DNA of 64,000 nt from Rhizobium sp. Leaf306 (GTDB taxonomy: Bacteria > Pseudomonadota > Alphaproteobacteria > Rhizobiales > Rhizobiaceae). The DNA lies in contig NZ_LMNX01000001.1 of the NCBI RefSeq assembly GCF_001423425.1, positions 1,417,001 through 1,481,000 of the forward strand, in the 5' to 3' direction. Below the pieces are notes generated by a model, which did not search any database, was not told the origin of the DNA, and worked only from the letters and a program-made list of their open reading frames with translations. Shown here one piece after another: positions 1 to 8,691 of the stretch; positions within the stretch are counted from its first letter, which is position 1; each line of letters begins with the position of its first letter. Both the position numbers and the translations under genes were made by a program.

Positions 1-2
1 CC

Positions 3-317
3 GCTGACGTTGAACGCTGGATCGTGGGCGCCGACAACGCGGCAGAGAATGGCTCAAACAGCGGCTCAGACTTTCGCGTGCGGGCTTACACCGACGCAGG
101 CGGCTTCAACGTTGATGCTCTGGTCATCTCGCGCGCGACCGGCGTCGTGACTTTTGGCGCTGCCCCGAAGCTTCCCTCTTACACAGTTGCGACCCTCCCG
201 GCCGCGTCCGCCTACGTCCAAGGCGTGATCTACGTCTCGAATGGGACCGCAAGCAAGCGTCTCGCGATCTCGGATGGCACCAACTGGCGCTTTCCTGACG
301 GCGCAATTGTCTCCTAA
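3..317 (+). CDS. Phage tail fibre / tail protein, C-terminal part (5' truncated)
   Basis: The reading frame is open from the first bases of the window, so the gene starts upstream and only about 104 C-terminal residues are visible. The segment with RWIVGADN, then SGSDFRVRAYTDAGGF and ISRATGVVTF, is the beta-rich repeat pattern seen in tail-fibre and tail-collar-like proteins of tailed phages. The end (VIYVSNGTASKRLAISDGTNWRF) resembles the small terminal domain of many phage structural proteins. It sits directly upstream of another phage gene and the lysis genes, which fits the usual tail-then-lysis order. The assignment rests on motif style and context. Host range or receptor cannot be inferred. 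Confidence 0.7.
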   Translation, partial: ADVERWIVGADNAAENGSNSGSDFRVRAYTDAGGFNVDALVISRATGVVTFGAAPKLPSYTVATLPAASAYVQGVIYVSNGTASKRLAISDGTNWRFPDGAIVS

Positions 318-341
318 CAATCAAACGAAGGAATGCCTAAA

Positions 342-827
342 ATGGCTCTTACAGATACCAAAACCCCTTATGAGATTCTGATCCGCTTCGGCCTCGACGG
401 TCTGCCGACCGGCGCGCATTGCCAGTACCTTCGCCGTGTCGTTCTCGATGGCGAAGTGCTGAAGGAAGAGGTCGGTCAGGCCGAGCCCCTCGATATCGCC
501 GGCTTCCCCACCTCGGGCATCATGTCGAACACGGCCCGCGATGCCCTGGCACGCGTGACGGCGTTGGAAAGCGAAAAGTCTGGCCTCATCGAGCAGCTCG
601 AGACAGCCGGCGAACGGGTGGCTGAATTGACTGCCGAGAAGGAGGCGCTTGCCACGCAGGTTCGCGAACTGCAGGCACAGATCGCAGGCCTCAATGATCG
701 AGCGTCGGCCGCGGCGACTGAAAAGCAGATCGTCGATGCGCAGCTGGCTGCAGCCAACCAGGAACGTGACGGCCTCGCGGATCAGGTTCGCGACCTCAGC
801 TCGAAGGCGAGCTTAGAATCCGAGTAA
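342..827 (+). CDS. Prophage protein with long coiled coil
   Basis: About 161 residues. An in-frame ATG lies at 333, but the GAAGGA Shine-Dalgarno (327-332) touches it with no spacing. The same motif is 9 bases from the ATG at 342, so 342 is preferred. Residues 1-60 form a compact domain beginning MALTDTKTPYEILIRFG. From about residue 65 to the end the sequence is a heptad-rich Ala/Glu/Gln/Leu coiled coil. It follows the tail-fibre gene by 24 bases and precedes the endolysin. Its position suggests a tail-associated or fibre-assembly protein. I do not recognise a named family, and the function is unknown. Confidence 0.7.
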   Translation: MALTDTKTPYEILIRFGLDGLPTGAHCQYLRRVVLDGEVLKEEVGQAEPLDIAGFPTSGIMSNTARDALARVTALESEKSGLIEQLETAGERVAELTAEKEALATQVRELQAQIAGLNDRASAAATEKQIVDAQLAAANQERDGLADQVRDLSSKASLESE

Positions 828-914
828 CGGCGGCGCATCTGGCGCCGTCACACTTAGACCGCGAAACATCGCCGCCGCTACGTTGAGACGCGGCAACTTC
901 AAGGACAATCCGAC

Positions 915-1646
915 ATGAATTCGATTCTGCAAAAAACGCAGAAGCGCATGCTGCTGCTTGGCTTCTCGCTACCGAAATACGGCGCCGACGGTGATTACGG
1001 CAAAGAGGCTGACGATGCCTTCAATTCGGCGCTCGACGAGCTGGAGAAGCTGCGCGGTCTTATCGCTACGCCTCCAACCTCCCTGCCGCCACCTGTCCCA
1101 ACAACTTCAGTCGATACAAGGGATAAGGTGATCTCTTCGGCTTGGATGCCGGATGCCAAGATCATCGGCATCGTCTTCCACTGGACGGCCGGACAGAACA
1201 AGGCCAGCGATCTCGATCGGTCTCACTACCACGTCCTGATCGAAGGTGACGGCAAGCACGTCCGCGGCGTGCCGTCGATCGACCTCAACAGCCTTCCAAA
1301 AGCCAAGTCCGGGTATGCCGCTCACACGCTGAACTGCAACACCGGTTTTATCGGCGTGTCGCTTTGCGGCATGGCCGGCGCCATTGAGATCCCGTTCAGT
1401 GCCGGCAAGCAGCCGATTACGCGTGTCCAGTGGGATGAACTGGCAAACGTTCTGGCACAGCTATGCAAGCGCTACGGCATCAAGGTCAGCCGCAAGACAG
1501 TTCTCAGCCATGCCGAGGTGCAAACGAACCTCGGCATCAAGCAGAAAGGCAAGTGGGACATCGCCCGCCTGCCGTTTGACACCTCCATCCAAGGCGCAGT
1601 CGCAATCGGCGACCAGATGCGCGCCATGGTGCAATCCAAGCTTTAA
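915..1646 (+). CDS. Phage endolysin, N-acetylmuramoyl-L-alanine amidase (Amidase_2/PGRP fold)
   Basis: 243 residues. It should cleave the amide bond between MurNAc and L-Ala in peptidoglycan to release phage. Residues 1-50 look like a small peptidoglycan-binding-type helical segment (KRMLLLGF, YGADGDYG). A Pro/Thr linker covers about 52-66, and the amidase domain runs from about 80 to 240. The probable zinc ligands are H89 (FHWTAG), H199 (LSHAEV) and D215 (GKWDIARLPFD), in the order expected for Amidase_2 enzymes. There is no signal peptide, so export should depend on the holin encoded 30 bases downstream. A GGA-type ribosome site lies upstream of ATG 915. Confidence 0.88.
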   Translation: MNSILQKTQKRMLLLGFSLPKYGADGDYGKEADDAFNSALDELEKLRGLIATPPTSLPPPVPTTSVDTRDKVISSAWMPDAKIIGIVFHWTAGQNKASDLDRSHYHVLIEGDGKHVRGVPSIDLNSLPKAKSGYAAHTLNCNTGFIGVSLCGMAGAIEIPFSAGKQPITRVQWDELANVLAQLCKRYGIKVSRKTVLSHAEVQTNLGIKQKGKWDIARLPFDTSIQGAVAIGDQMRAMVQSKL

Positions 1647-1676
1647 ACCCAACCCCTCGAAACAAGGAACTTTCCT

Positions 1677-2201
1677 ATGATCCGCATCGATATGATCGCG
1701 GCGCGTTTCTTTGCGCTGCTCGCTATTTTGTTCGTTCTCGCAAACACGCTGCAGCCGGCGCATGCGCAGGAGGCTGCGCCCGTCGTCGCCACGTCCTCTG
1801 TCTGGTTCGACCTTTGGGCGATCGTTCAGCCGCTTGTCGTGCTTCTCGGCTCGATCGTGGGGCCCGTGCTGATCACGTGGATCTCGGCGCGTCTGATCTC
1901 GTTACTTAAGGTAGCTGACGAAAAGCAGCAGCTCGACATTCAAGCGAAACTTCGCCAAGGCCTTCACGACTCGGCCGCCAACGCTCTGAAGTTTGCACTT
2001 GCTCGATCCGGTATTGCTGGCGGGTCGATTGCCAGCGTTACTGCTTCGGCGATCACCAGCGCGATGCTGCGAGACGCGACAAAGTATGTCGAGGAAAAGA
2101 ACCCGGAAACGCTGCAGAAGCTCGGCGTCACGCCCAACGCCTTGCAGGACATCATCATGTCGAAGGTTGCGGATCTGCTGCCGAAGCAGCCGTCTCGATA
2201 A
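1677..2201 (+). CDS. Phage holin-like membrane protein (LLH-type)
   Basis: 174 residues. The N-terminus (about residues 7-30) is a hydrophobic signal-like segment ending in AHAQ. A second hydrophobic stretch (about 44-72, LWAIVQPLVVLLGSIVGPVL) can span the membrane. The C-terminal half is amphipathic and helical with many Ala and Lys residues. Gene size, topology and position right after the amidase match LLH-like holins that form inner-membrane lesions to release endolysin. AAGGAAC lies just before ATG 1677. The call relies on topology and context rather than on catalytic motifs. The downstream hairpin at 2234-2272 probably ends this lysis operon. Confidence 0.7.
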   Translation: MIRIDMIAARFFALLAILFVLANTLQPAHAQEAAPVVATSSVWFDLWAIVQPLVVLLGSIVGPVLITWISARLISLLKVADEKQQLDIQAKLRQGLHDSAANALKFALARSGIAGGSIASVTASAITSAMLRDATKYVEEKNPETLQKLGVTPNALQDIIMSKVADLLPKQPSR

Positions 2202-2211
2202 CTTCGGCTGT

Positions 2212-2517
2212 CTATGCCGAGCCTGCAATTTTCGTTAGGGGCCATCCGCTCGGCGGAGGCGTGGCCCCTAACTTTTCCGCCCGCTGATCTAGCTTCTCAA
2301 CAGCCTTCACGCGGGCATCTTCGACAGTGTCGGCGGTCACGGTGACGATCCAACGGCCGGCGCGAAAACGATAGGTGTTCTTCGGGGGATACATTCGATG
2401 TCTGGAGCCTGCCACGAATGCCATCCACGCCACGCGGCGATCGATCCCCGCCTTTGTTTCGTCTGAGAGCAAGTCCCACCAGGCTCTGAAGCCCGCGCTC
2501 GTGTCCGATTTCGTCAT
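2212..2517 (-). CDS. Hypothetical prophage protein
   Basis: 101 residues, soluble and basic, with no recognised domain. The N-terminal half contains several Trp and Arg residues (FRAWWDLLSDETKAG, RVAWMAFVAGSRHR). The middle (YRFRAGRWIVTVTADTVEDARVKAVEKL) reads like a small beta-alpha module. It converges with the holin gene with a 10-base gap, and its last codons overlap a strong terminator hairpin for the opposite strand. With the next two genes it forms a short leftward group typical of late-region accessory genes. Function unknown. Confidence 0.5.
   Translation of the reverse strand: MTKSDTSAGFRAWWDLLSDETKAGIDRRVAWMAFVAGSRHRMYPPKNTYRFRAGRWIVTVTADTVEDARVKAVEKLDQRAEKLGATPPPSGWPLTKIAGSA
2234..2276 (+). 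terminator. Rho-independent terminator of the lysis genes
   Basis: GTTAGGGGCCA (2234-2244) pairs perfectly with TGGCCCCTAAC (2262-2272). The loop itself contains a TCCGC/GCGGA mini-stem, and TTTT follows on the + strand. It lies 33 bases after the holin stop codon. It is also inside the 3' end of the opposing gene at 2212-2517, so those bases also encode that protein's C-terminus. Confidence 0.75.
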
Positions 2518-2559
2518 GACAATCTCACGCCTGTACGCTGTTAGTTTCTGCCAAGACGC

Positions 2560-2763
2560 TCACCGTAGCATCTCGGCAATCTCGGCCGCTTCACTGCGCG
2601 CCTGGTTCGGTTTGTGCGGGTAATGCTCCCAGCACCACCATTGCGGCTCTCCGCGATTGTTCGAGAAGCCAAAGCCGCCCCACTCCCGGCATGACGGGAC
2701 GCTGCACCAATGGACATAAAGCTTCGCTGGTCCATTCAAAACGGTCCTAGTCTCGTCGCTCAT
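2560..2763 (-). CDS. Small prophage protein with Cys/Trp-rich motif
   Basis: 67 residues. ATG 2763 is preferred over a longer frame because GGGAG lies 8 bases upstream. The ATG also overlaps the stop of the preceding gene (ATGA), a sign of translational coupling. The core has CSVPSCREWGGFGF, followed by QWWCWEHYP. This Cys-x4-Cys plus Cys-x2-His arrangement could bind one zinc ion, as in small phage zinc-finger proteins. No catalytic motif is visible. Function unknown. Confidence 0.55.
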   Translation of the reverse strand: MSDETRTVLNGPAKLYVHWCSVPSCREWGGFGFSNNRGEPQWWCWEHYPHKPNQARSEAAEIAEMLR

Positions 2764-3044
2764 CCGCGTGGCTCCCAAAGGATCTGTGCTTGCAGGAGGC
2801 AGGGAAACCTCGCCCGACATTTCTCGGTCCCGGCATGCTCGCATCCCATAGCCAGCACGCGCCGGATCTGAACGAACTCCGCGTCCGCTCCAAACTTCTT
2901 GACCAAACTCTTGTGGCTGAAAACGCCCTGGCGAGCGCAGGGGGTGCAGACCATCTCAATGGTCTCGGCGCGATAGTCTTGGAGCGTTGGAAGCGGCATA
3001 GCAGGTTTCGTCTGTCTTTCGGACACGGGTTCTCGCTCGCGCAC
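2760..3044 (-). CDS. Small prophage protein, possible zinc-binding
   Basis: Up to 94 residues from a GTG at 3044. An ATG at 2999 would give 79 residues, and neither has a strong ribosome site, so the start is uncertain. It contains MVCTPCARQGVFSHKSLVKKFG and later AMGCEHAGTEKCRARFPCL. The paired cysteines suggest a metal-binding fold of the kind found in short Rhizobiales phage proteins. Its stop codon overlaps the start of the next gene by 4 bases, so the two are co-translated. Function unknown. Confidence 0.5.
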   Translation of the reverse strand: MREREPVSERQTKPAMPLPTLQDYRAETIEMVCTPCARQGVFSHKSLVKKFGADAEFVQIRRVLAMGCEHAGTEKCRARFPCLLQAQILWEPRG

Positions 3045-3195
3045 GGGGCACGTGTTCGCCTTCGAATAGGATGTTGATTGCCGGCCTCACACGGCGGTTT
3101 CGTTCTTATTATGTTCTCATCTGTTGGCGTGAGTCAACACCCGCCAGAGTGCGAAATTGCCAAAGGGCTAGAAACGAATGACTGGGAGAAACGAC

Positions 3196-3807
3196 ATGCC
3201 AAATGGCGCCTTTGATCCTGAAGCAAAATATGCGCAGCTTGGCGAGCGCGTCGAAAACCAATCCCGGCAGATCGGCGACCTCGACAACCGAATGGGCAAG
3301 GGCTTTTCGGAGATCGCCTCGCAAATCCGTTCGCTGGTCGATGATATTCGCGGCGGATCGAAAACGCAGTGGCCGATCATCATCGGCTTTTGTTCAGTGA
3401 CGATCACCGTTCTGGGCGGTCTCGGGTTCATGGCGCTGCAGCCGATCAAAGATAACATCGTCACGATGCGTGAGGACGTGCGCATGCGCGCGATCGAGAC
3501 AAAGGACAGCCTGTCAACGATCGTTGCTAGCATGGTCACGCAGAAAGAGATGGAATGGCGGACAGCGCGCGGCCAAGAAGACCGTCAGCGAACGGAAGCG
3601 GCAATCAAAGAGCTTCGGGAAGGGCTAGTGCCGAGAGACGAACACGCTCGCGTTTGGGCGAACTATGATCAGCGCTTTCAGGATCAGCAGCGGCAAGTAG
3701 ATGAACTGAAACAGGCCCAGGGCAGCGTCTACGGCGCGCGAGACGTTATCATGGATCTCAGGCAGCGCCTCGATCGGGTGGAGGGCGAGCGGATTGGCCA
3801 GCCTTAG
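3196..3807 (+). CDS. Prophage membrane-anchored coiled-coil protein
   Basis: 203 residues from ATG 3196, chosen over ATG 3178 because GGGAG lies 7 bases before it. Residues 1-55 are an acidic helical segment with NQSRQIGDLDNRMGKGFSEI. One transmembrane helix spans about 59-79 (WPIIIGFCSVTITVLGGLGFMAL). The remainder is a long charged coiled coil, ending in DLRQRLDRVEGER. There is no lipobox or cleavable signal. Its location after the lysis genes suggests a phage envelope-associated role. I cannot assign it to a spanin or another named family. Confidence 0.55.
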   Translation: MPNGAFDPEAKYAQLGERVENQSRQIGDLDNRMGKGFSEIASQIRSLVDDIRGGSKTQWPIIIGFCSVTITVLGGLGFMALQPIKDNIVTMREDVRMRAIETKDSLSTIVASMVTQKEMEWRTARGQEDRQRTEAAIKELREGLVPRDEHARVWANYDQRFQDQQRQVDELKQAQGSVYGARDVIMDLRQRLDRVEGERIGQP

Positions 3808-3970
3808 TCGTCGTTCGACTTAGTGTCCCTGAGCCACGAGGGAGAACCCTTCAACGCTTTGTTCTCGCTGAGCTGCGTATCATCTGGCATAATTTACGAT
3901 CTATTAATCTTTCCTTTGCAGGTGATTAACCTAAAGAATTGTAGTATCGATCAGTCACAGGGTGCTGCCG

Positions 3971-4954
3971 ATGCGTCAATTTACCTTCGCCGATCTCTTT
4001 TGTGGAGCGGGTCTTTTTTCCGAGGGCTTCAGAAGTTTGGGCTTTCGCCCCTCCTTTGCAGTAGATCTCGATCAGCGAGCGGTTGCTTCGTATAACCGCA
4101 ACGTCTCTCCTGTTGCGGCCTGCGGATCAGTATCTCTGGAAATAGCTATGCCTTCTGTAGACTGCCTGATCGCGGGCCCACCCTGTCAGGGCTTCAGTAC
4201 ATTAGGCCGCCGGGACGGAGCGGATGAAAGAAACCGTCTATCAGCGTATCTGCCGACGCTCGCAAACGCCTCAGGCGCCCTTATTGTTGTAGTGGAAAAT
4301 GTGCCGCCTTTTCTAGCGTCCACACATTGGGAAAAGATGGCGGCAGGCTTTGTGCGTTTAGGATATAAAGTGCAGACAATGGTTCTTGACGCGCAGGATT
4401 ACGGCGCACCACAGCGTCGCGCTAGAGCATTCACCATTGCGTCCAAGCTCGGAGCGATAGAGACTCCTCTCAAGAGCTCGACGAAAACGACGGTTTCCGA
4501 AGTATTGAGAGGTATCGCGCCGAGTGATCCGCTCCATGTATGGCCACAACCGACGGCTTTGGCACTGGAACGTATCAAACGGATACCTGCGGGGGGCGAT
4601 AAGCGTGACCTGATGAAGAGTGCGCCCTATCTATGCCCCGCTTCCTGGCATGCTCTGGGTGCCCAAGCGACTGATGTCTGGGGACGGATGGACGCCAATT
4701 CTCCCTCTAATACCTTGCGCTGCCGCTTTCAAAATCCATCGACAGGAAGGTATCTACACCCCACCGAAGACAGAGTGATTTCCTTACGGGAGGGGGCTCG
4801 CCTTCAAGGCGTTCCAGATCGCTGGCGATTTGAAGGCGACAGGTCCGCAGTGCAAAGGCAGATTGGCAACGGCGTACCTGTTCCCTTGGCCGCGGCAGTT
4901 GCAACCTCCGTCCATGCGGCACTGCGTCTTTCGCAATCGGCTGAGGCAGCTTAG
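3971..4954 (+). CDS. DNA (cytosine-5-)-methyltransferase
   Basis: 327 residues, starting at ATG 3971 (AGGG 8 bases upstream) rather than GTG 3962. It transfers a methyl group from SAM to C5 of cytosine in DNA. The family motifs are all present in order: motif I DLFCGAGLFSEGF (8-20), motif IV GPPCQGFS (69-76) with catalytic C72, motif VI ENVP (109-112), motif VIII QRRAR (148-152), and motif X QIGNGVPVPLA near the C-terminus. The target-recognition region between VIII and IX is short, so the recognised site cannot be read from sequence. Base composition is AT-richer than the flanking chromosome. It faces the ATPase-nuclease gene, and their stop codons share 4 bases (TTAG). It is probably the modification half of a restriction/defence pair. 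Confidence 0.95.
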   Translation: MRQFTFADLFCGAGLFSEGFRSLGFRPSFAVDLDQRAVASYNRNVSPVAACGSVSLEIAMPSVDCLIAGPPCQGFSTLGRRDGADERNRLSAYLPTLANASGALIVVVENVPPFLASTHWEKMAAGFVRLGYKVQTMVLDAQDYGAPQRRARAFTIASKLGAIETPLKSSTKTTVSEVLRGIAPSDPLHVWPQPTALALERIKRIPAGGDKRDLMKSAPYLCPASWHALGAQATDVWGRMDANSPSNTLRCRFQNPSTGRYLHPTEDRVISLREGARLQGVPDRWRFEGDRSAVQRQIGNGVPVPLAAAVATSVHAALRLSQSAEAA

Positions 4955-7170
4955 GTAGTCGATGCCTTGATAGGCTCGTCGAAGGTCTCGACGCCCTCCT
5001 CATCAAGCTCGCGCTCAAGGACGTCGATGGCGTCGATGTGAGCCGTGCGAGCGTCCTTGATCAACTCACTCATTCCAATAATCCTAATAGGGTCTCGTGG
5101 GGTAGATGCGAAATATTTCGCAAGCAGGTGAGCTTCATCTTGGATAGAGGGGTTCGGTTTGGGGAGTTCGCCGATCAAAATACCTTGGACATTGACTTTA
5201 TGCGATAGATTTGCCTCGCACCAATCGACCGTCTTATAGATATAGTCTTCAAGCTGACGCCAGTGGCTCAACCTTAGTCCGATCGTAGGTGCTTTGAGCT
5301 CTACAATTTTTATAATGAATGGGCCGTCAATTGAAGGTTCTGACGCTAGAAATACGAGATCTGGTCGCGTAACATCAACCTTGTTCCCATCGACCACCTT
5401 AGCGAATTTATCGACTCTAAGCTCTCGCGCTACTTTAGAGACAACCTTCTCCATTCGCTCGTCACTGGAAATATAATGGCTGAACTCCGGACGTATCAAC
5501 CAAGGATTTTCCTTAAGAAGTTGATGGAATTCACGCTCGTTCTGCTCTTTTTTCCAGGCAGAGATAGACCGCTCATGCAGTTCCATGAGCTTTAGAATAC
5601 CGTTCTTTCTGGCCTTGTAGAGTTTTAGTGCGTCCCATCGTTCGATATCGGAGACCTGACGCAACTGAACAGTCAGGTCTTCAATCGTTTTCAGATGAAT
5701 TCCGGAGGACGAAAGCTGGATCAAGACTTCGCTCGAGTTGATTGACCGGATCAGCGTTGGAGCCAGATCTTGAAACTCCTCGCTCCCAACGTCGTAGTCG
5801 CGCGCGAAAATGCGGAGAAGCTTTCTAGATGGCTCTCTAGTTTTAGCAGGCAAAGCCATGATCTGCCTCTCGATCATACTGGCTATCGGATCGGCTTTTA
5901 TATCGTCTTCGGCCTTTTCCTCGCGCCACTTGCCGTGTGCGCGGACGGCGGCGATCATTAAGCCCCTGACCACCTCCAGGAACGATTCGACGATCTCGTT
6001 CCCTTCCTTAAGGTCGCCTCTATCGGTAGCAATTAGGTCTAGTCCACCGCGGTCGAGAACGTCTGCCTCGACCATGCACTCCATGTAGTCGCTACCATAG
6101 AAGTTGTGCATTCCTGTTGCCATGCCAAAGAGGCTAGGTCCCGCTGCAGCTCGCTTGTTACAGTAGATGCGGGCACCCCGCTCATTACCCTTCAGCGATT
6201 TCGGTCGAAACCCGACGTAGTATTTGAATGGGAACTTCCCGACTTCTGGGACTTCGAAATAAGCGGTGGCCAGCTCATTCTTTTTGATTTTATCAACGGT
6301 GATTTCAGGAGGGTAGATGAAGACATAATCCGGGTGATAGGGTGGGATCGGTACGTCGTTGATGCGTATCTCGAAGTCTTCAGGTTTCAGGCCAAAAAAT
6401 CGTCGTTGAATGGTCCCAATGACTGTTTCTTGCCGTTCTTTCAGGGCCTCTGCACGCAGACGAGAAAGGGTTATCGTTGTTCCCTTCTTCCCTGCGTCAA
6501 CGTCCTTATATGTTACCGGAAGCTTAAGTTGCTCTATTGGCTTCCCTTCCTGCATGCTTTCAGTGTCGATCGTAACAATCGTGGCGAATGGCTCACCCTC
6601 GATTGTAGTCTCTACCTCAGCTCTAAGAGCCGCTCCGAACCCCGCGAGTTTGCCTACCCCTTTACGTCCCATGACCATACGTCCGCCTGGGGTCCGAAGG
6701 ATGCTCTCCAGTCCACTCGAGTCCTTCCGCCGCTGATGGTTCACCGATAAGAACTTATTTTTCACATCCTGCCATGACATTCCGTGACCGTTGTCTTCGA
6801 TGACAATTTGGAAATTAGGAGGCAGAATTTGTTGAATAGCGTCGAAGTTCTCAATCAGCGTTGAGGAAACCTCATCAGGCGTTGGCGTGCCTCCGTCAGC
6901 CTCACTGAGAAAAGCTTTTCCGGACGCGGCCTGGTGTTGAGTTCTTAACTTGATCCGCTCTGCCGCGATTGCTTCAAAGTCAATTTTTATGTTCACGCGG
7001 CTTGCGTCGCTGTCGTGAGCATTGGCGATGAACTCAACCAGCACCTTCCCAAGGTTGCTGTACATATCAGCGCCCAAGGTTCGCACGATCCCGCTCATAA
7101 ACGTCATTTCCATCTCTGACGGGCGGTTCGTATCGTCTTCCCGGGCATTCTCGATGCTGGTGGTGTCCAT
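4951..7170 (-). CDS. GHKL (MutL/Hsp90-type) ATPase fused to PD-(D/E)XK nuclease, defence-type
   Basis: 739 residues. The N-terminal ATPase has an N-box EFIANAHDSDA (46-56), G1 EDNGHGM (125-131, D126/G128/G130), G2 GRKGVGK (168-174) and a G3-like GTTITL (230-235), the Bergerat fold of MutL, Hsp90 and MORC. A linker (about 410-540) is helical. The C-terminus starts with NEREFHQLLKENPWLI (544-559), as in DUF4263/Shedu-like nucleases. It continues with RPDLVF (D604) and VELKAP (E624-L-K626), a PD-(D/E)XK active site, followed by WRQLEDYI. Iyer, Abhiman and Aravind described MutL-like ATPases beside Dcm-type methyltransferases in restriction-like systems, and this gene fits that group. It probably cleaves or translocates on DNA lacking the partner's mark. 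That role is inferred. Confidence 0.85.
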   Translation of the reverse strand: MDTTSIENAREDDTNRPSEMEMTFMSGIVRTLGADMYSNLGKVLVEFIANAHDSDASRVNIKIDFEAIAAERIKLRTQHQAASGKAFLSEADGGTPTPDEVSSTLIENFDAIQQILPPNFQIVIEDNGHGMSWQDVKNKFLSVNHQRRKDSSGLESILRTPGGRMVMGRKGVGKLAGFGAALRAEVETTIEGEPFATIVTIDTESMQEGKPIEQLKLPVTYKDVDAGKKGTTITLSRLRAEALKERQETVIGTIQRRFFGLKPEDFEIRINDVPIPPYHPDYVFIYPPEITVDKIKKNELATAYFEVPEVGKFPFKYYVGFRPKSLKGNERGARIYCNKRAAAGPSLFGMATGMHNFYGSDYMECMVEADVLDRGGLDLIATDRGDLKEGNEIVESFLEVVRGLMIAAVRAHGKWREEKAEDDIKADPIASMIERQIMALPAKTREPSRKLLRIFARDYDVGSEEFQDLAPTLIRSINSSEVLIQLSSSGIHLKTIEDLTVQLRQVSDIERWDALKLYKARKNGILKLMELHERSISAWKKEQNEREFHQLLKENPWLIRPEFSHYISSDERMEKVVSKVARELRVDKFAKVVDGNKVDVTRPDLVFLASEPSIDGPFIIKIVELKAPTIGLRLSHWRQLEDYIYKTVDWCEANLSHKVNVQGILIGELPKPNPSIQDEAHLLAKYFASTPRDPIRIIGMSELIKDARTAHIDAIDVLERELDEEGVETFDEPIKASTT

Positions 7171-7539
7171 GTCGCTGCCAATTATGTTTCCTGATTCGTA
7201 GCTTTCCTTGAACGGCGAGCGTTTTGCAACCGGAAGCTATAAATCGCTGTCGCGATAATTGTCCCTTTCGACTCTGTGCATATCCTCCGTCATGCTCGAT
7301 ATAGCTGACCGATGCATGCTGGATCGGCGGTGCGGGAAGCGTCTAAATTTTCGAAGCGATAACAAACCGGCTTTAGAACCCCTCACCTTCGCAGGAGTTC
7401 GTTGTTATTGCTTCCGAATTTCAGGCTATTCGTCGTCCAATTGGGACTCGAACAATCGAGAAGAACGAGGAGAGGCGTTGTCACGGGCTGTGAGAGATTG
7501 GTTTACGCGATGCCAAACGGATCGGACAAGAAACTTGCC
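7171..7539. other. Gene-free 370-bp spacer
   Basis: No convincing gene is seen. Short open frames on the + strand (7259-7543 and 7402-7653) lack ribosome sites and recognisable sequence. It should hold the promoter of the ATPase-nuclease gene, which is transcribed leftward from 7170. Composition is AT-richer than the surrounding chromosome. Confidence 0.5.
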
Positions 7540-8232
7540 CTAATCGGATGTGTTCGACCAATCGAAGAAGCTTCGCAGCACCCCCATATGCGCCCGCTGG
7601 ACGATGCGTCCATTATTCAGCATCCCAGGAGGAATGTCGGCCGTTGTTTTTAGAGGAAACCTGCCCTCGGCATCAAGGTTGTCGCCCGCGTACTGAAGTA
7701 TTCGGGCTAGCGCATAGGTATCCGCAATCAGCCCCAACTCGTCGCCGCCCCTTACAGGATTGAAGCTCTCAATTTCGCGAACCTGTGCGATCGTGATCGT
7801 CGCGAGCATGGAGTCTATGTAAGCTAATCTTTTGTATTGAGCCACAATGAACTCTGTGCTCAGGCTGTTCGGCCCTATTATCATAGTCGACAGCGAACTT
7901 CCTATGTCGATGAACCTTTGTGAGGCAATCGAGCAAGCAGCCAGGGCGTCGTCGCGGGCATCTGCATCACGATGACGTTTAGCGTCCCTCGCCTGCATCT
8001 GGTATGCCATCACGACGCTTGCACCACCAGCCAGAGCAGCTAACCCAGCAAGCAAGTCTTGGTAGGAGGAGATCCATCCGAGAGTGATAAAATCACCGAA
8101 GCGTTGCCATGCAAGTCCGGTGCACGCCTCGCTCCATATCCGGCCGCAGCCGGCGCGGCTCCATTTGAAGTAGATCGCGAGTGTCAGCCACAGTGTGACA
8201 ATCCCTAAAAGGGGCCATTGGAACCGTTTCAT
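7540..8232 (-). CDS. Hypothetical two-helix membrane protein
   Basis: 230 residues. A hydrophobic N-terminus (about 5-22, WPLLGIVTLWLTLAIYF) and a second helix (about 58-78, DLLAGLAALAGGASVVMAYQM) suggest two membrane spans with a short periplasmic loop. The remaining 150 residues are cytoplasmic and mostly helical. AGGA lies 8 bases before ATG 8232. It has the same strand as the ATPase-nuclease but is separated by 370 bp, so it is probably not in the same operon. I recognise no family. It may be prophage cargo or an accessory of the neighbouring defence genes. Both are inferences. Confidence 0.55.
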   Translation of the reverse strand: MKRFQWPLLGIVTLWLTLAIYFKWSRAGCGRIWSEACTGLAWQRFGDFITLGWISSYQDLLAGLAALAGGASVVMAYQMQARDAKRHRDADARDDALAACSIASQRFIDIGSSLSTMIIGPNSLSTEFIVAQYKRLAYIDSMLATITIAQVREIESFNPVRGGDELGLIADTYALARILQYAGDNLDAEGRFPLKTTADIPPGMLNNGRIVQRAHMGVLRSFFDWSNTSD

Positions 8233-8691
8233 ATCTAGTCCTGTGAACAGAGATGCAGCGTATGCATATCAGAGTTCGTTTGCTGACCGTTGATAGATTC
8301 CCACGTCAGCCCTCCGGAATCTTATCTAGCCCGTCTGGACACTTTTAGAAAAAGCATAACGATTGCGTAGGGTCAAAAACTGTCCAGACGGTCGGTAACC
8401 ACATTGATTATATTATATTCAGGTGTGCCGGCATGGGGCACCACTCGCTCGTAAGAGCGTTGATTTTGCATCCCTTCTGGAAATATCCCCCACCTGCATT
8501 CCGGCGCGAAAAGTACTGTCTCGATTGACGTCAAGCTGTCTCGAACGTGAACGAACGCGCTGTTTCACTTGTCAAATCGAGCTCTGAGCTTGCCCTTGCC
8601 AGCGTCCAGTCGGCATCTCTGCCTGTTTCCACTGCGTCGAAACCGATACCGGACCTTTCATTCCGCTTTGGTTCGCCTATCCCACCGTTTC
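8233..8691. other. Gene-free boundary region between accessory DNA and chromosome
   Basis: About 460 bp without a supportable gene. It contains the long inverted repeat at 8331-8391 and two smaller hairpins (GGTGTGCC/GGGGCACC around 8422-8442 and CGCTC/GAGCG around 8446-8459). It also has an AT-rich stretch near 8402-8420. It separates the AT-richer module from the GC-rich chromosome that starts with the EAL gene, so an attachment site could lie here. No duplicated core can be seen, because the other prophage end is outside the window. Confidence 0.4.
8331..8391. repeat. Inverted repeat, 11-bp arms
   Basis: CCGTCTGGACA (8331-8341) and TGTCCAGACGG (8381-8391) are perfect inverted copies separated by 39 AT-rich bases that include TTTTAGAAAAAG. 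The spacer is too long and not T-tailed, so this is not a normal terminator. It could be a recombinase or regulator binding site at the edge of the accessory region. Confidence 0.6.

What the first reader, a model, noticed from the sequence alone, without database searches (positions are those of the whole stretch)
3971..7170. Compact two-gene defence module: C5-methyltransferase facing a GHKL ATPase-PD-(D/E)XK nuclease fusion
The methyltransferase has all catalytic motifs. The partner joins a MutL/Hsp90-type ATPase (N-box, G1, G2, G3) to a Shedu/DUF4263-like nuclease with D604 and E624-x-K626. MutL-like ATPases near Dcm-type enzymes were reported as restriction-like systems, usually with separate helicase or nuclease genes. 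Here ATPase and nuclease are one polypeptide and no helicase is present. The block is AT-richer than the flanks and sits at a prophage edge, which fits mobile immunity. The mechanism (ATP-gated cleavage of unmodified DNA) is inferred.
Basis: partly seen in the sequence, partly recalled or inferred. Interest (0 to 1): 0.85.

Follow-up and report, generated by a model that had tools for sequence, protein, structure and literature searches.

The report
Prophage restriction system with ATPase-fused nuclease
A prophage carries a two-gene DNA-marking and DNA-cutting pair of a kind already described, here from a side branch of the family whose DNA target and use of ATP have not been worked out.

Summary
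A C5-cytosine methyltransferase (3971-4954, +) faces a 739-aa GHKL ATPase/PD-(D/E)XK protein (4951-7170, -), tail to tail with a 4-nt overlap. Models show a MORC-like GHKL+S5 half and an EndoMS/Shedu-like nuclease domain with E545, D604, E624-x-K626. All 64 relatives scanned match the BbrUII/HgiDII model. The window protein scores 170 bits against a cut-off of 550, so it lies beside that curated family, in a 13-row clade with an insert in the ATPase domain. Of 130 usable non-redundant loci, 111 have a C5 methyltransferase within 800 bp, and the two proteins' distances correlate (Mantel r 0.64). The pair is cargo of a 41.4-kb prophage at a tRNA-Leu gene; the likely attR is 8428-8444. Most likely it is a type II-like restriction-modification system. 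Target site, ATP dependence and anti-phage activity are inferred. New member of a known kind.

The parts
3971..4954 (+). C5-cytosine DNA methyltransferase (327 aa from ATG 3971)
   Evidence: PF00145 9e-51; TIGR00675 dcm 124.6 bits, cut-off 100.65; PADLOC MTase_II 8.2e-67
4951..7170 (-). GHKL ATPase - S5 - helical linker - PD-(D/E)XK nuclease, 739 aa
   Evidence: HATPase_c_3; NF050001 BbrUII/HgiDII 8e-50; phrog_6203 1.5e-59 over residues 119-709; AlphaFold model pLDDT 84.9
6001..7116 (-). GHKL ATPase plus S5/transducer domains, about residues 19-390
   Evidence: VIA-align: Morc3 ATPase-CW 5ix2_B Z 24.6, 297 aligned, rmsd 3.2; MORC4, MORC2, TRAP1, SMCHD1, Hsp90, topo VI-B follow
6811..6981 (-). 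insert of the GHKL domain, residues 64-120, two predicted helices, typical of the 13-row clade
   Evidence: 38-65 residues in 13 of 13 clade rows against median 7 (max 31) in 120 others; helices 65-88 and 98-112 in the model
4999..5565 (-). PD-(D/E)XK nuclease domain, residues 536-724
   Evidence: separate AlphaFold model pLDDT 87.4, pTM 0.82; EndoMS 5gke_A Z 11.2, Shedu 8ti9_B Z 8.8; profile of the domain hits NucS 2vld at 1.1e-5
5359..5361 (-). codon of D604
   Evidence: conserved in at least 90% of 64; aligned with the D of NucS in the profile match
5293..5301 (-). codons of E624-L625-K626
   Evidence: E624 in at least 90% of 64; K626 in 97 of 126 rows with a letter, M in 23; aligned with ELK of NucS and EndoMS
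7540..8232 (-). ORF of 230 aa, the longest one between the pair and the likely attR; probably further prophage cargo
   Evidence: no match over cut-off in Pfam and none in PADLOC, NCBIfam (E 0.1) or PHROGs (E 0.01)
8428..8444 (.). likely attR: 17-bp copy of the 3' end of tRNA-Leu(CAA); the other copy is at G000:C1:1383997-1384013
   Evidence: 17-bp exact repeat; tRNA-Leu at L216:3928-4012; integrase match at C1:1384173-1384640
1..8444 (.). right end of the 41.4-kb prophage (C1:1383997-1425444): tail gene, endolysin, a weakly Rz-like gene, then the pair
   Evidence: PHROGs tail spike and endolysin matches; Phage_lysis 22 bits, under its cut-off of 25.4; ORF table of the upstream stretch

Best explanation
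A prophage-borne, type II-like restriction-modification system. The methyltransferase marks cytosine C5 at a specific, unidentified site. The partner is a dimeric GHKL ATPase whose C-terminal PD-(D/E)XK domain cuts DNA that lacks the mark. It is a sister subfamily of the BbrUII/HgiDII restriction enzymes and has the paraMORC3 architecture. Shown: gene order, domains, conserved catalytic residues, frequent pairing in relatives, prophage location. Inferred: cleavage, site specificity, dimerisation, ATP-gated clamping of DNA, and immunity of the lysogen against other phages.
For: NF050001 8e-50 for the window protein and a match in 64 of 64 sequences. Two PADLOC REase_II models match 64 of 64. 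The restriction-enzyme model also aligns through the nuclease domain: profile 304-638 on C1:1422038-1423093, about residues 360-711, 7.3e-9. 111 of 130 rows (133 under 90% identity, 3 at contig ends set aside) have a C5 methyltransferase within 800 bp; the same model in 414,516 control bases found only the window's own gene. GHKL and methyltransferase distances correlate over 101 pairs, Mantel r 0.64, 999 permutations at most 0.086. MORC-like and EndoMS/Shedu-like folds. M.HgiDII is a characterised GTCGAC methyltransferase and M.BbrUII a characterised C5 methyltransferase, as cited in PMC5867850 (passages read).
Against: The window protein scores far below the family cut-off (170 against 550 bits), so activity cannot be carried over directly. 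The seed of the survey (A1) held the window protein and five others that all have a methyltransferase neighbour, which may favour paired loci. 19 of 133 rows have none within 800 bp (four of the loci have one 1.3-2.4 kb away), and Iyer et al. report a subset of paraMORC3 as stand-alone genes (passages read). K626 is M in 23 of 126 rows. A haloarchaeal methyltransferase of the HgiDII kind gave no detectable methylation (PMC5867850, passages read). I saw no biochemical test of this pair.
Confidence: 0.8

Rival explanations
1. A Shedu-like (type I-D) sensor nuclease: the GHKL domain senses phage DNA ends or structures and triggers the nuclease independently of sequence; the methyltransferase is a loosely linked neighbour.
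For: VcSduA has GHKL plus DUF4263 nuclease and defends on its own (passages read). 38 of 62 isolated nuclease domains hit SduA_C at E 0.1 or better. Shedu chains lead the Foldseek list at 3.1e-4 and score Z 8.8 and 8.6. 19 of 133 rows lack a methyltransferase within 800 bp.
Against: The window's own SduA_C match is E 0.01, 16.4 bits against 27. All 13 rows of its clade have a methyltransferase within 800 bp, and over the family the two proteins' distances correlate.
Confidence: 0.1
2. A mismatch-repair accessory: a MutL-like ATPase with an EndoMS/NucS-like nuclease that mends T:G mismatches left by deamination of the neighbouring methylase's product, as Vsr does.
For: The highest-scoring fold of the nuclease in VIA-align is EndoMS/NucS, also found by profile; the own genome has no Vsr match.
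Against: A Vsr-like gene coexists with the GHKL gene in 45 of 165 loci, so the one does not replace the other there. Relatives are curated as restriction enzymes. Fold similarity among PD-(D/E)XK proteins does not carry function.
Confidence: 0.05
3. A decayed or orphan system that only methylates; the nuclease is expressed weakly or inactive.
For: HVO_C0040, a HgiDII-like methyltransferase, appears silent (passages read).
Against: Both frames are intact and the listed catalytic residues are present.
Confidence: 0.05

Closest known systems
BbrUII/HgiDII family restriction enzymes (NCBIfam NF050001), with their C5 methyltransferases
   Same: GHKL ATPase and C-terminal PD-(D/E)XK in one polypeptide, homology over both halves, C5 methyltransferase next door
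   Different: 170 bits against a cut-off of 550; a separate clade; 38-65-residue insert in the GHKL domain; mostly convergent genes in its clade; target unknown
paraMORC3 (Iyer, Abhiman and Aravind 2008, PMC2292703)
   Same: GHKL + S5 + C-terminal RE-fold nuclease with E-D-ExK; the paraMORC2-5 families are reported near DNA methylases and Vsr nucleases (passages read)
   Different: they also report helicase neighbours for these families and a stand-alone subset of paraMORC3; no reference sequence was at hand to place the window protein in their tree; the phage relative in PhiR44_1 is deposited as ParaMORC3
VcSduA, Shedu type I-D (PMC12137116)
   Same: GHKL ATPase and PD-(D/E)XK nuclease in one protein
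   Different: VcSduA defends as a single gene; the window's SduA_C match is below cut-off; the VcSduA sequence was not compared here
MzaB and other MutL-like defence ATPases
   Same: GHKL ATPase domain; the MzaB model matches 31 of 64 sequences at E 0.001
   Different: Mza is multi-gene (recalled); the window protein itself does not match MzaB at E 0.001

Membership tests
BbrUII/HgiDII restriction enzymes (NF050001) | score over the curated cut-off of 550 bits | tested here: not met
   170 bits; clade members P0003, L055, L060, L063 187.5, 181.1, 189.5, 217.2
BbrUII/HgiDII restriction enzymes (NF050001) | homology over ATPase and nuclease | tested here: met
   profile 49-205 on residues 121-277 and 304-638 on about residues 360-711; P0003 113-707 on 49-639 in its best stretch
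BbrUII/HgiDII restriction enzymes (NF050001) | adjacent C5 methyltransferase | tested here: met
BbrUII/HgiDII restriction enzymes (NF050001) | GTCGAC specificity | not testable with these tools
   GTCGAC occurs 29 times in the 41,448-bp prophage and 33 times in 55,555 bp of host; no avoidance and no information on specificity
paraMORC3 | GHKL + S5 + C-terminal RE-fold domain with E-D-ExK | tested here: met
   definition read
paraMORC3 | place in the authors' paraMORC3 clade | not tested
   no reference sequences at hand
Shedu (SduA) | SduA_C / DUF4263 domain over Pfam cut-off (27 bits) | tested here: not met
   no hit in the whole protein; 16.4 bits, E 0.01 for the isolated domain
Shedu (SduA) | SduA-type nuclease fold | tested here: inconclusive
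   Foldseek 3.1e-4, TM 0.34; Z 8.8, 138 aligned, rmsd 4.7 for 8ti9_B, behind EndoMS at Z 11.2
MutL mismatch repair | MutL family score | tested here: not met
   no MutL model for the window protein at E 0.1; 48 of 64 sequences match TIGR00585 at E 0.001
C5-cytosine DNA methyltransferase | PF00145 / TIGR00675 over cut-off | tested here: met
   173.6 against 22 bits; 124.6 against 100.65 bits
type II-like restriction-modification | cleavage at unmodified sites, protection by the methylase | not testable with these tools
   needs bench work

The most novel reading that the evidence does not exclude
This clade is an ATP-gated restriction enzyme that works as a MORC-like clamp: ATP-driven closing of the GHKL dimer traps DNA, the clade-specific helical insert contacts it, and the nuclease fires only on unmethylated sites held in the clamp. 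It would be a compact bacterial model for how MORC proteins hold DNA in response to methylation.
Probability: 0.3. Interest if true: 0.6.

Novelty: new member of a known kind. Interest (0 to 1): 0.22.

Why it matters
It adds a well-bounded prophage-borne subfamily to a restriction-enzyme family whose ATPase domain has no explained role in what I read. If ATP proves necessary, a small two-gene system would let MORC-type clamp behaviour be studied together with DNA methylation. As a discovery of a new kind of defence it does not stand.

Tried and rejected
Rejected: 'new architecture'. 'MutL repair protein'. 'Shedu member' by the Pfam cut-off.

Led nowhere: the viral-contig scan with the single protein matched no pattern; phmmer of the full protein against PDB sequences found nothing. 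Right of the prophage only the EAL gene itself matched, in seven of the eight stretches fetched from seven same-genus genomes. In nine stretches around the left host gene in other same-genus genomes a tRNA-Leu match follows that gene in eight (two in the other orientation), the 15-base part of the repeat I looked for is in none, and nothing right of the likely attR matched within 16 kb, so the empty site was not shown. GTCGAC counts say nothing on specificity. Helicases were not searched for around the relatives. Paper searches for the fusion as a type II enzyme returned nothing or no such paper; the Psychrobacter paper (passages read) has a 651-aa MutL-like ORF and separate RM pairs and was not used; PMC4618763 (passages read) held nothing on BbrUII. 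The full-length fold searches list ATPase-half matches, hence the separate nuclease model.

Rows dropped before counts: the N. gonorrhoeae hits (L051, longest GHKL frame 297 aa; H5 was not fetched) and L054 (same protein accession as L049) were not in the survey of 165 loci. With the window protein, 166 rows were cut to 133 under 90% identity and 3 of these set aside as contig ends. Seven of the 133 (length outside 550-800 aa, L065 among them) were left out of the tree of 126, a quick tree with SH-aLRT support only. Structure and family scans used 64, and for the nuclease domain 62, of these sequences.
Full report
What is there. The window holds a C5-cytosine methyltransferase at 3971-4954 (+) and a 739-aa protein at 4951-7170 (-); the two genes converge and overlap by four bases at their stop codons. 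The methyltransferase passes the Pfam and NCBIfam cut-offs. The partner has a GHKL ATPase domain by Pfam. An AlphaFold model from an alignment of 64 sequences (pLDDT 84.9) shows GHKL and S5 domains, a long helical region (about residues 390-540) and a C-terminal alpha/beta domain. The ATPase half matches MORC3 best (Z 24.6), with MORC4, MORC2, TRAP1, SMCHD1, Hsp90 and topoisomerase VI-B further down. The C-terminal domain modelled alone (pLDDT 87.4) matches EndoMS/NucS (Z 11.2 and 10.7) and Shedu (Z 8.8 and 8.6); in Foldseek's own order Shedu comes first at 3.1e-4 with a low TM-score of 0.34. A profile of 62 such domains finds NucS and EndoMS in the PDB by sequence (1.1e-5, 2.7e-5), and the alignment sets D604 on the NucS aspartate and E624-L-K626 on its ELK. 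E545, D604 and E624 are each conserved in at least 90% of 64 sequences, K626 in 97 of 126 rows with a letter.

What it belongs to. The protein matches the NCBIfam model 'BbrUII/HgiDII family restriction enzyme' at 8e-50, 170 bits against a cut-off of 550, and PADLOC REase_II models at about 2e-20 and 4e-20. All 64 members of the family alignment match these models. The window protein falls in a separate clade of 13 rows (SH-aLRT 100, quick tree, no bootstrap): a Shinella plasmid, two Sphingomonas, Methylobacterium, another Rhizobiales, Bradyrhizobium, Chromobacterium, a betaproteobacterium, two Verrucomicrobia, a planctomycete and a viral contig. All 13 carry a 38-65-residue stretch between the N-box and the G1 motif where 120 others have a median of 7 and at most 31. 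Eleven of 13 are convergent with the methyltransferase and two have it upstream on the same strand.

Pairing. Of 165 loci, 148 hold a C5-methyltransferase match somewhere in the stretch fetched. Of 133 rows under 90% identity, 111 have one within 800 bp, 19 do not and 3 lie at contig ends. In 414,516 control bases of the own and same-genus genomes, the window included, the only hit of the same model was the window's own gene; the own genome has one further C5 methyltransferase on another contig, outside those bases. Over 101 pairs the two proteins' distances correlate with r 0.64, against at most 0.086 in 999 permutations; shared ancestry of linked genes produces this, so it shows that the pair travels together, not that it interacts. 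The seed used for the scan held only proteins with a methyltransferase neighbour, which may favour paired loci. A Vsr-like gene is present in 45 of 165 loci, but PF03852 has no match in the window's genome.

Where it sits. The integrase match at C1:1384173-1384640 lies next to a tRNA-Leu(CAA); a 17-bp stretch covering its last 16 bases recurs at window 8428-8444. Between them are 41.4 kb. Left of the pair are a tail-spike match, an endolysin and a gene with a sub-threshold Rz-lysis match. The pair and a 230-aa unknown gene lie between these and the likely attR. Relatives are common on phages: in viral contigs 107 of 154 pattern-matching stretches encode one at E 1e-3 or better, and a P2-like phage carries one that is deposited as ParaMORC3.

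How it most likely works. Methylation of one site by the methyltransferase and cutting of unmarked DNA by the fusion protein is the plain reading, since M.HgiDII and M.BbrUII are characterised methyltransferases (as cited in PMC5867850; passages read) and NCBI files their family's fusion proteins as restriction enzymes. By analogy with MORC and other GHKL proteins (established knowledge), the ATPase would dimerise on ATP and clamp DNA. Which part reads the site is unknown.

What is known already. Iyer et al. 2008 defined paraMORC3 by this domain order and motif, and noted that a subset of paraMORC3 stands alone (passages read); they also report a minority of MORC neighbourhoods with methylases or nucleases but no helicase (passages read). 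In VcSduA both E27 of the ATPase and K557 of the nuclease are needed for defence (passages read). What remains new is a side branch of the family with an insert, and the open question of what ATP does in it.

Noticed in passing
family alignment, column of K626 (e.g. L050, L066, L072, L078, L091): 23 of 133 rows have ExM instead of ExK, and 22 of these 23 carry an arginine at the column of Q639 (74 of 97 K rows have Q there): a possible migrated catalytic base.
   Followed up: partly
window 7540-8232 (-): 230-aa ORF inside the prophage near the likely attR, with hydrophobic stretches near its N-terminus and no family match over cut-off in four libraries.
   Followed up: partly
G000:C3:122947-123939: A second C5-methyltransferase match in the host genome, 34% identical to the window's.
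   Followed up: no
L053, phage PhiR44_1: A P2-like phage carries the related pair between its portal gene Q and replication gene A.
   Followed up: no
L049, L057, L067, L072, L108 and others: Vsr-like genes lie in 45 of 165 loci, in several of them directly next to the GHKL gene.
   Followed up: partly
L051 (NZ_CP119142.1): A 2.17-Mb N. gonorrhoeae record filed as plasmid looks like a chromosome by size and holds a GHKL relative whose longest frame is only 297 aa.
   Followed up: no
phrog_6203: This PHROGs family of unknown function matches residues 119-709 of the window protein and could be named after it.
   Followed up: partly
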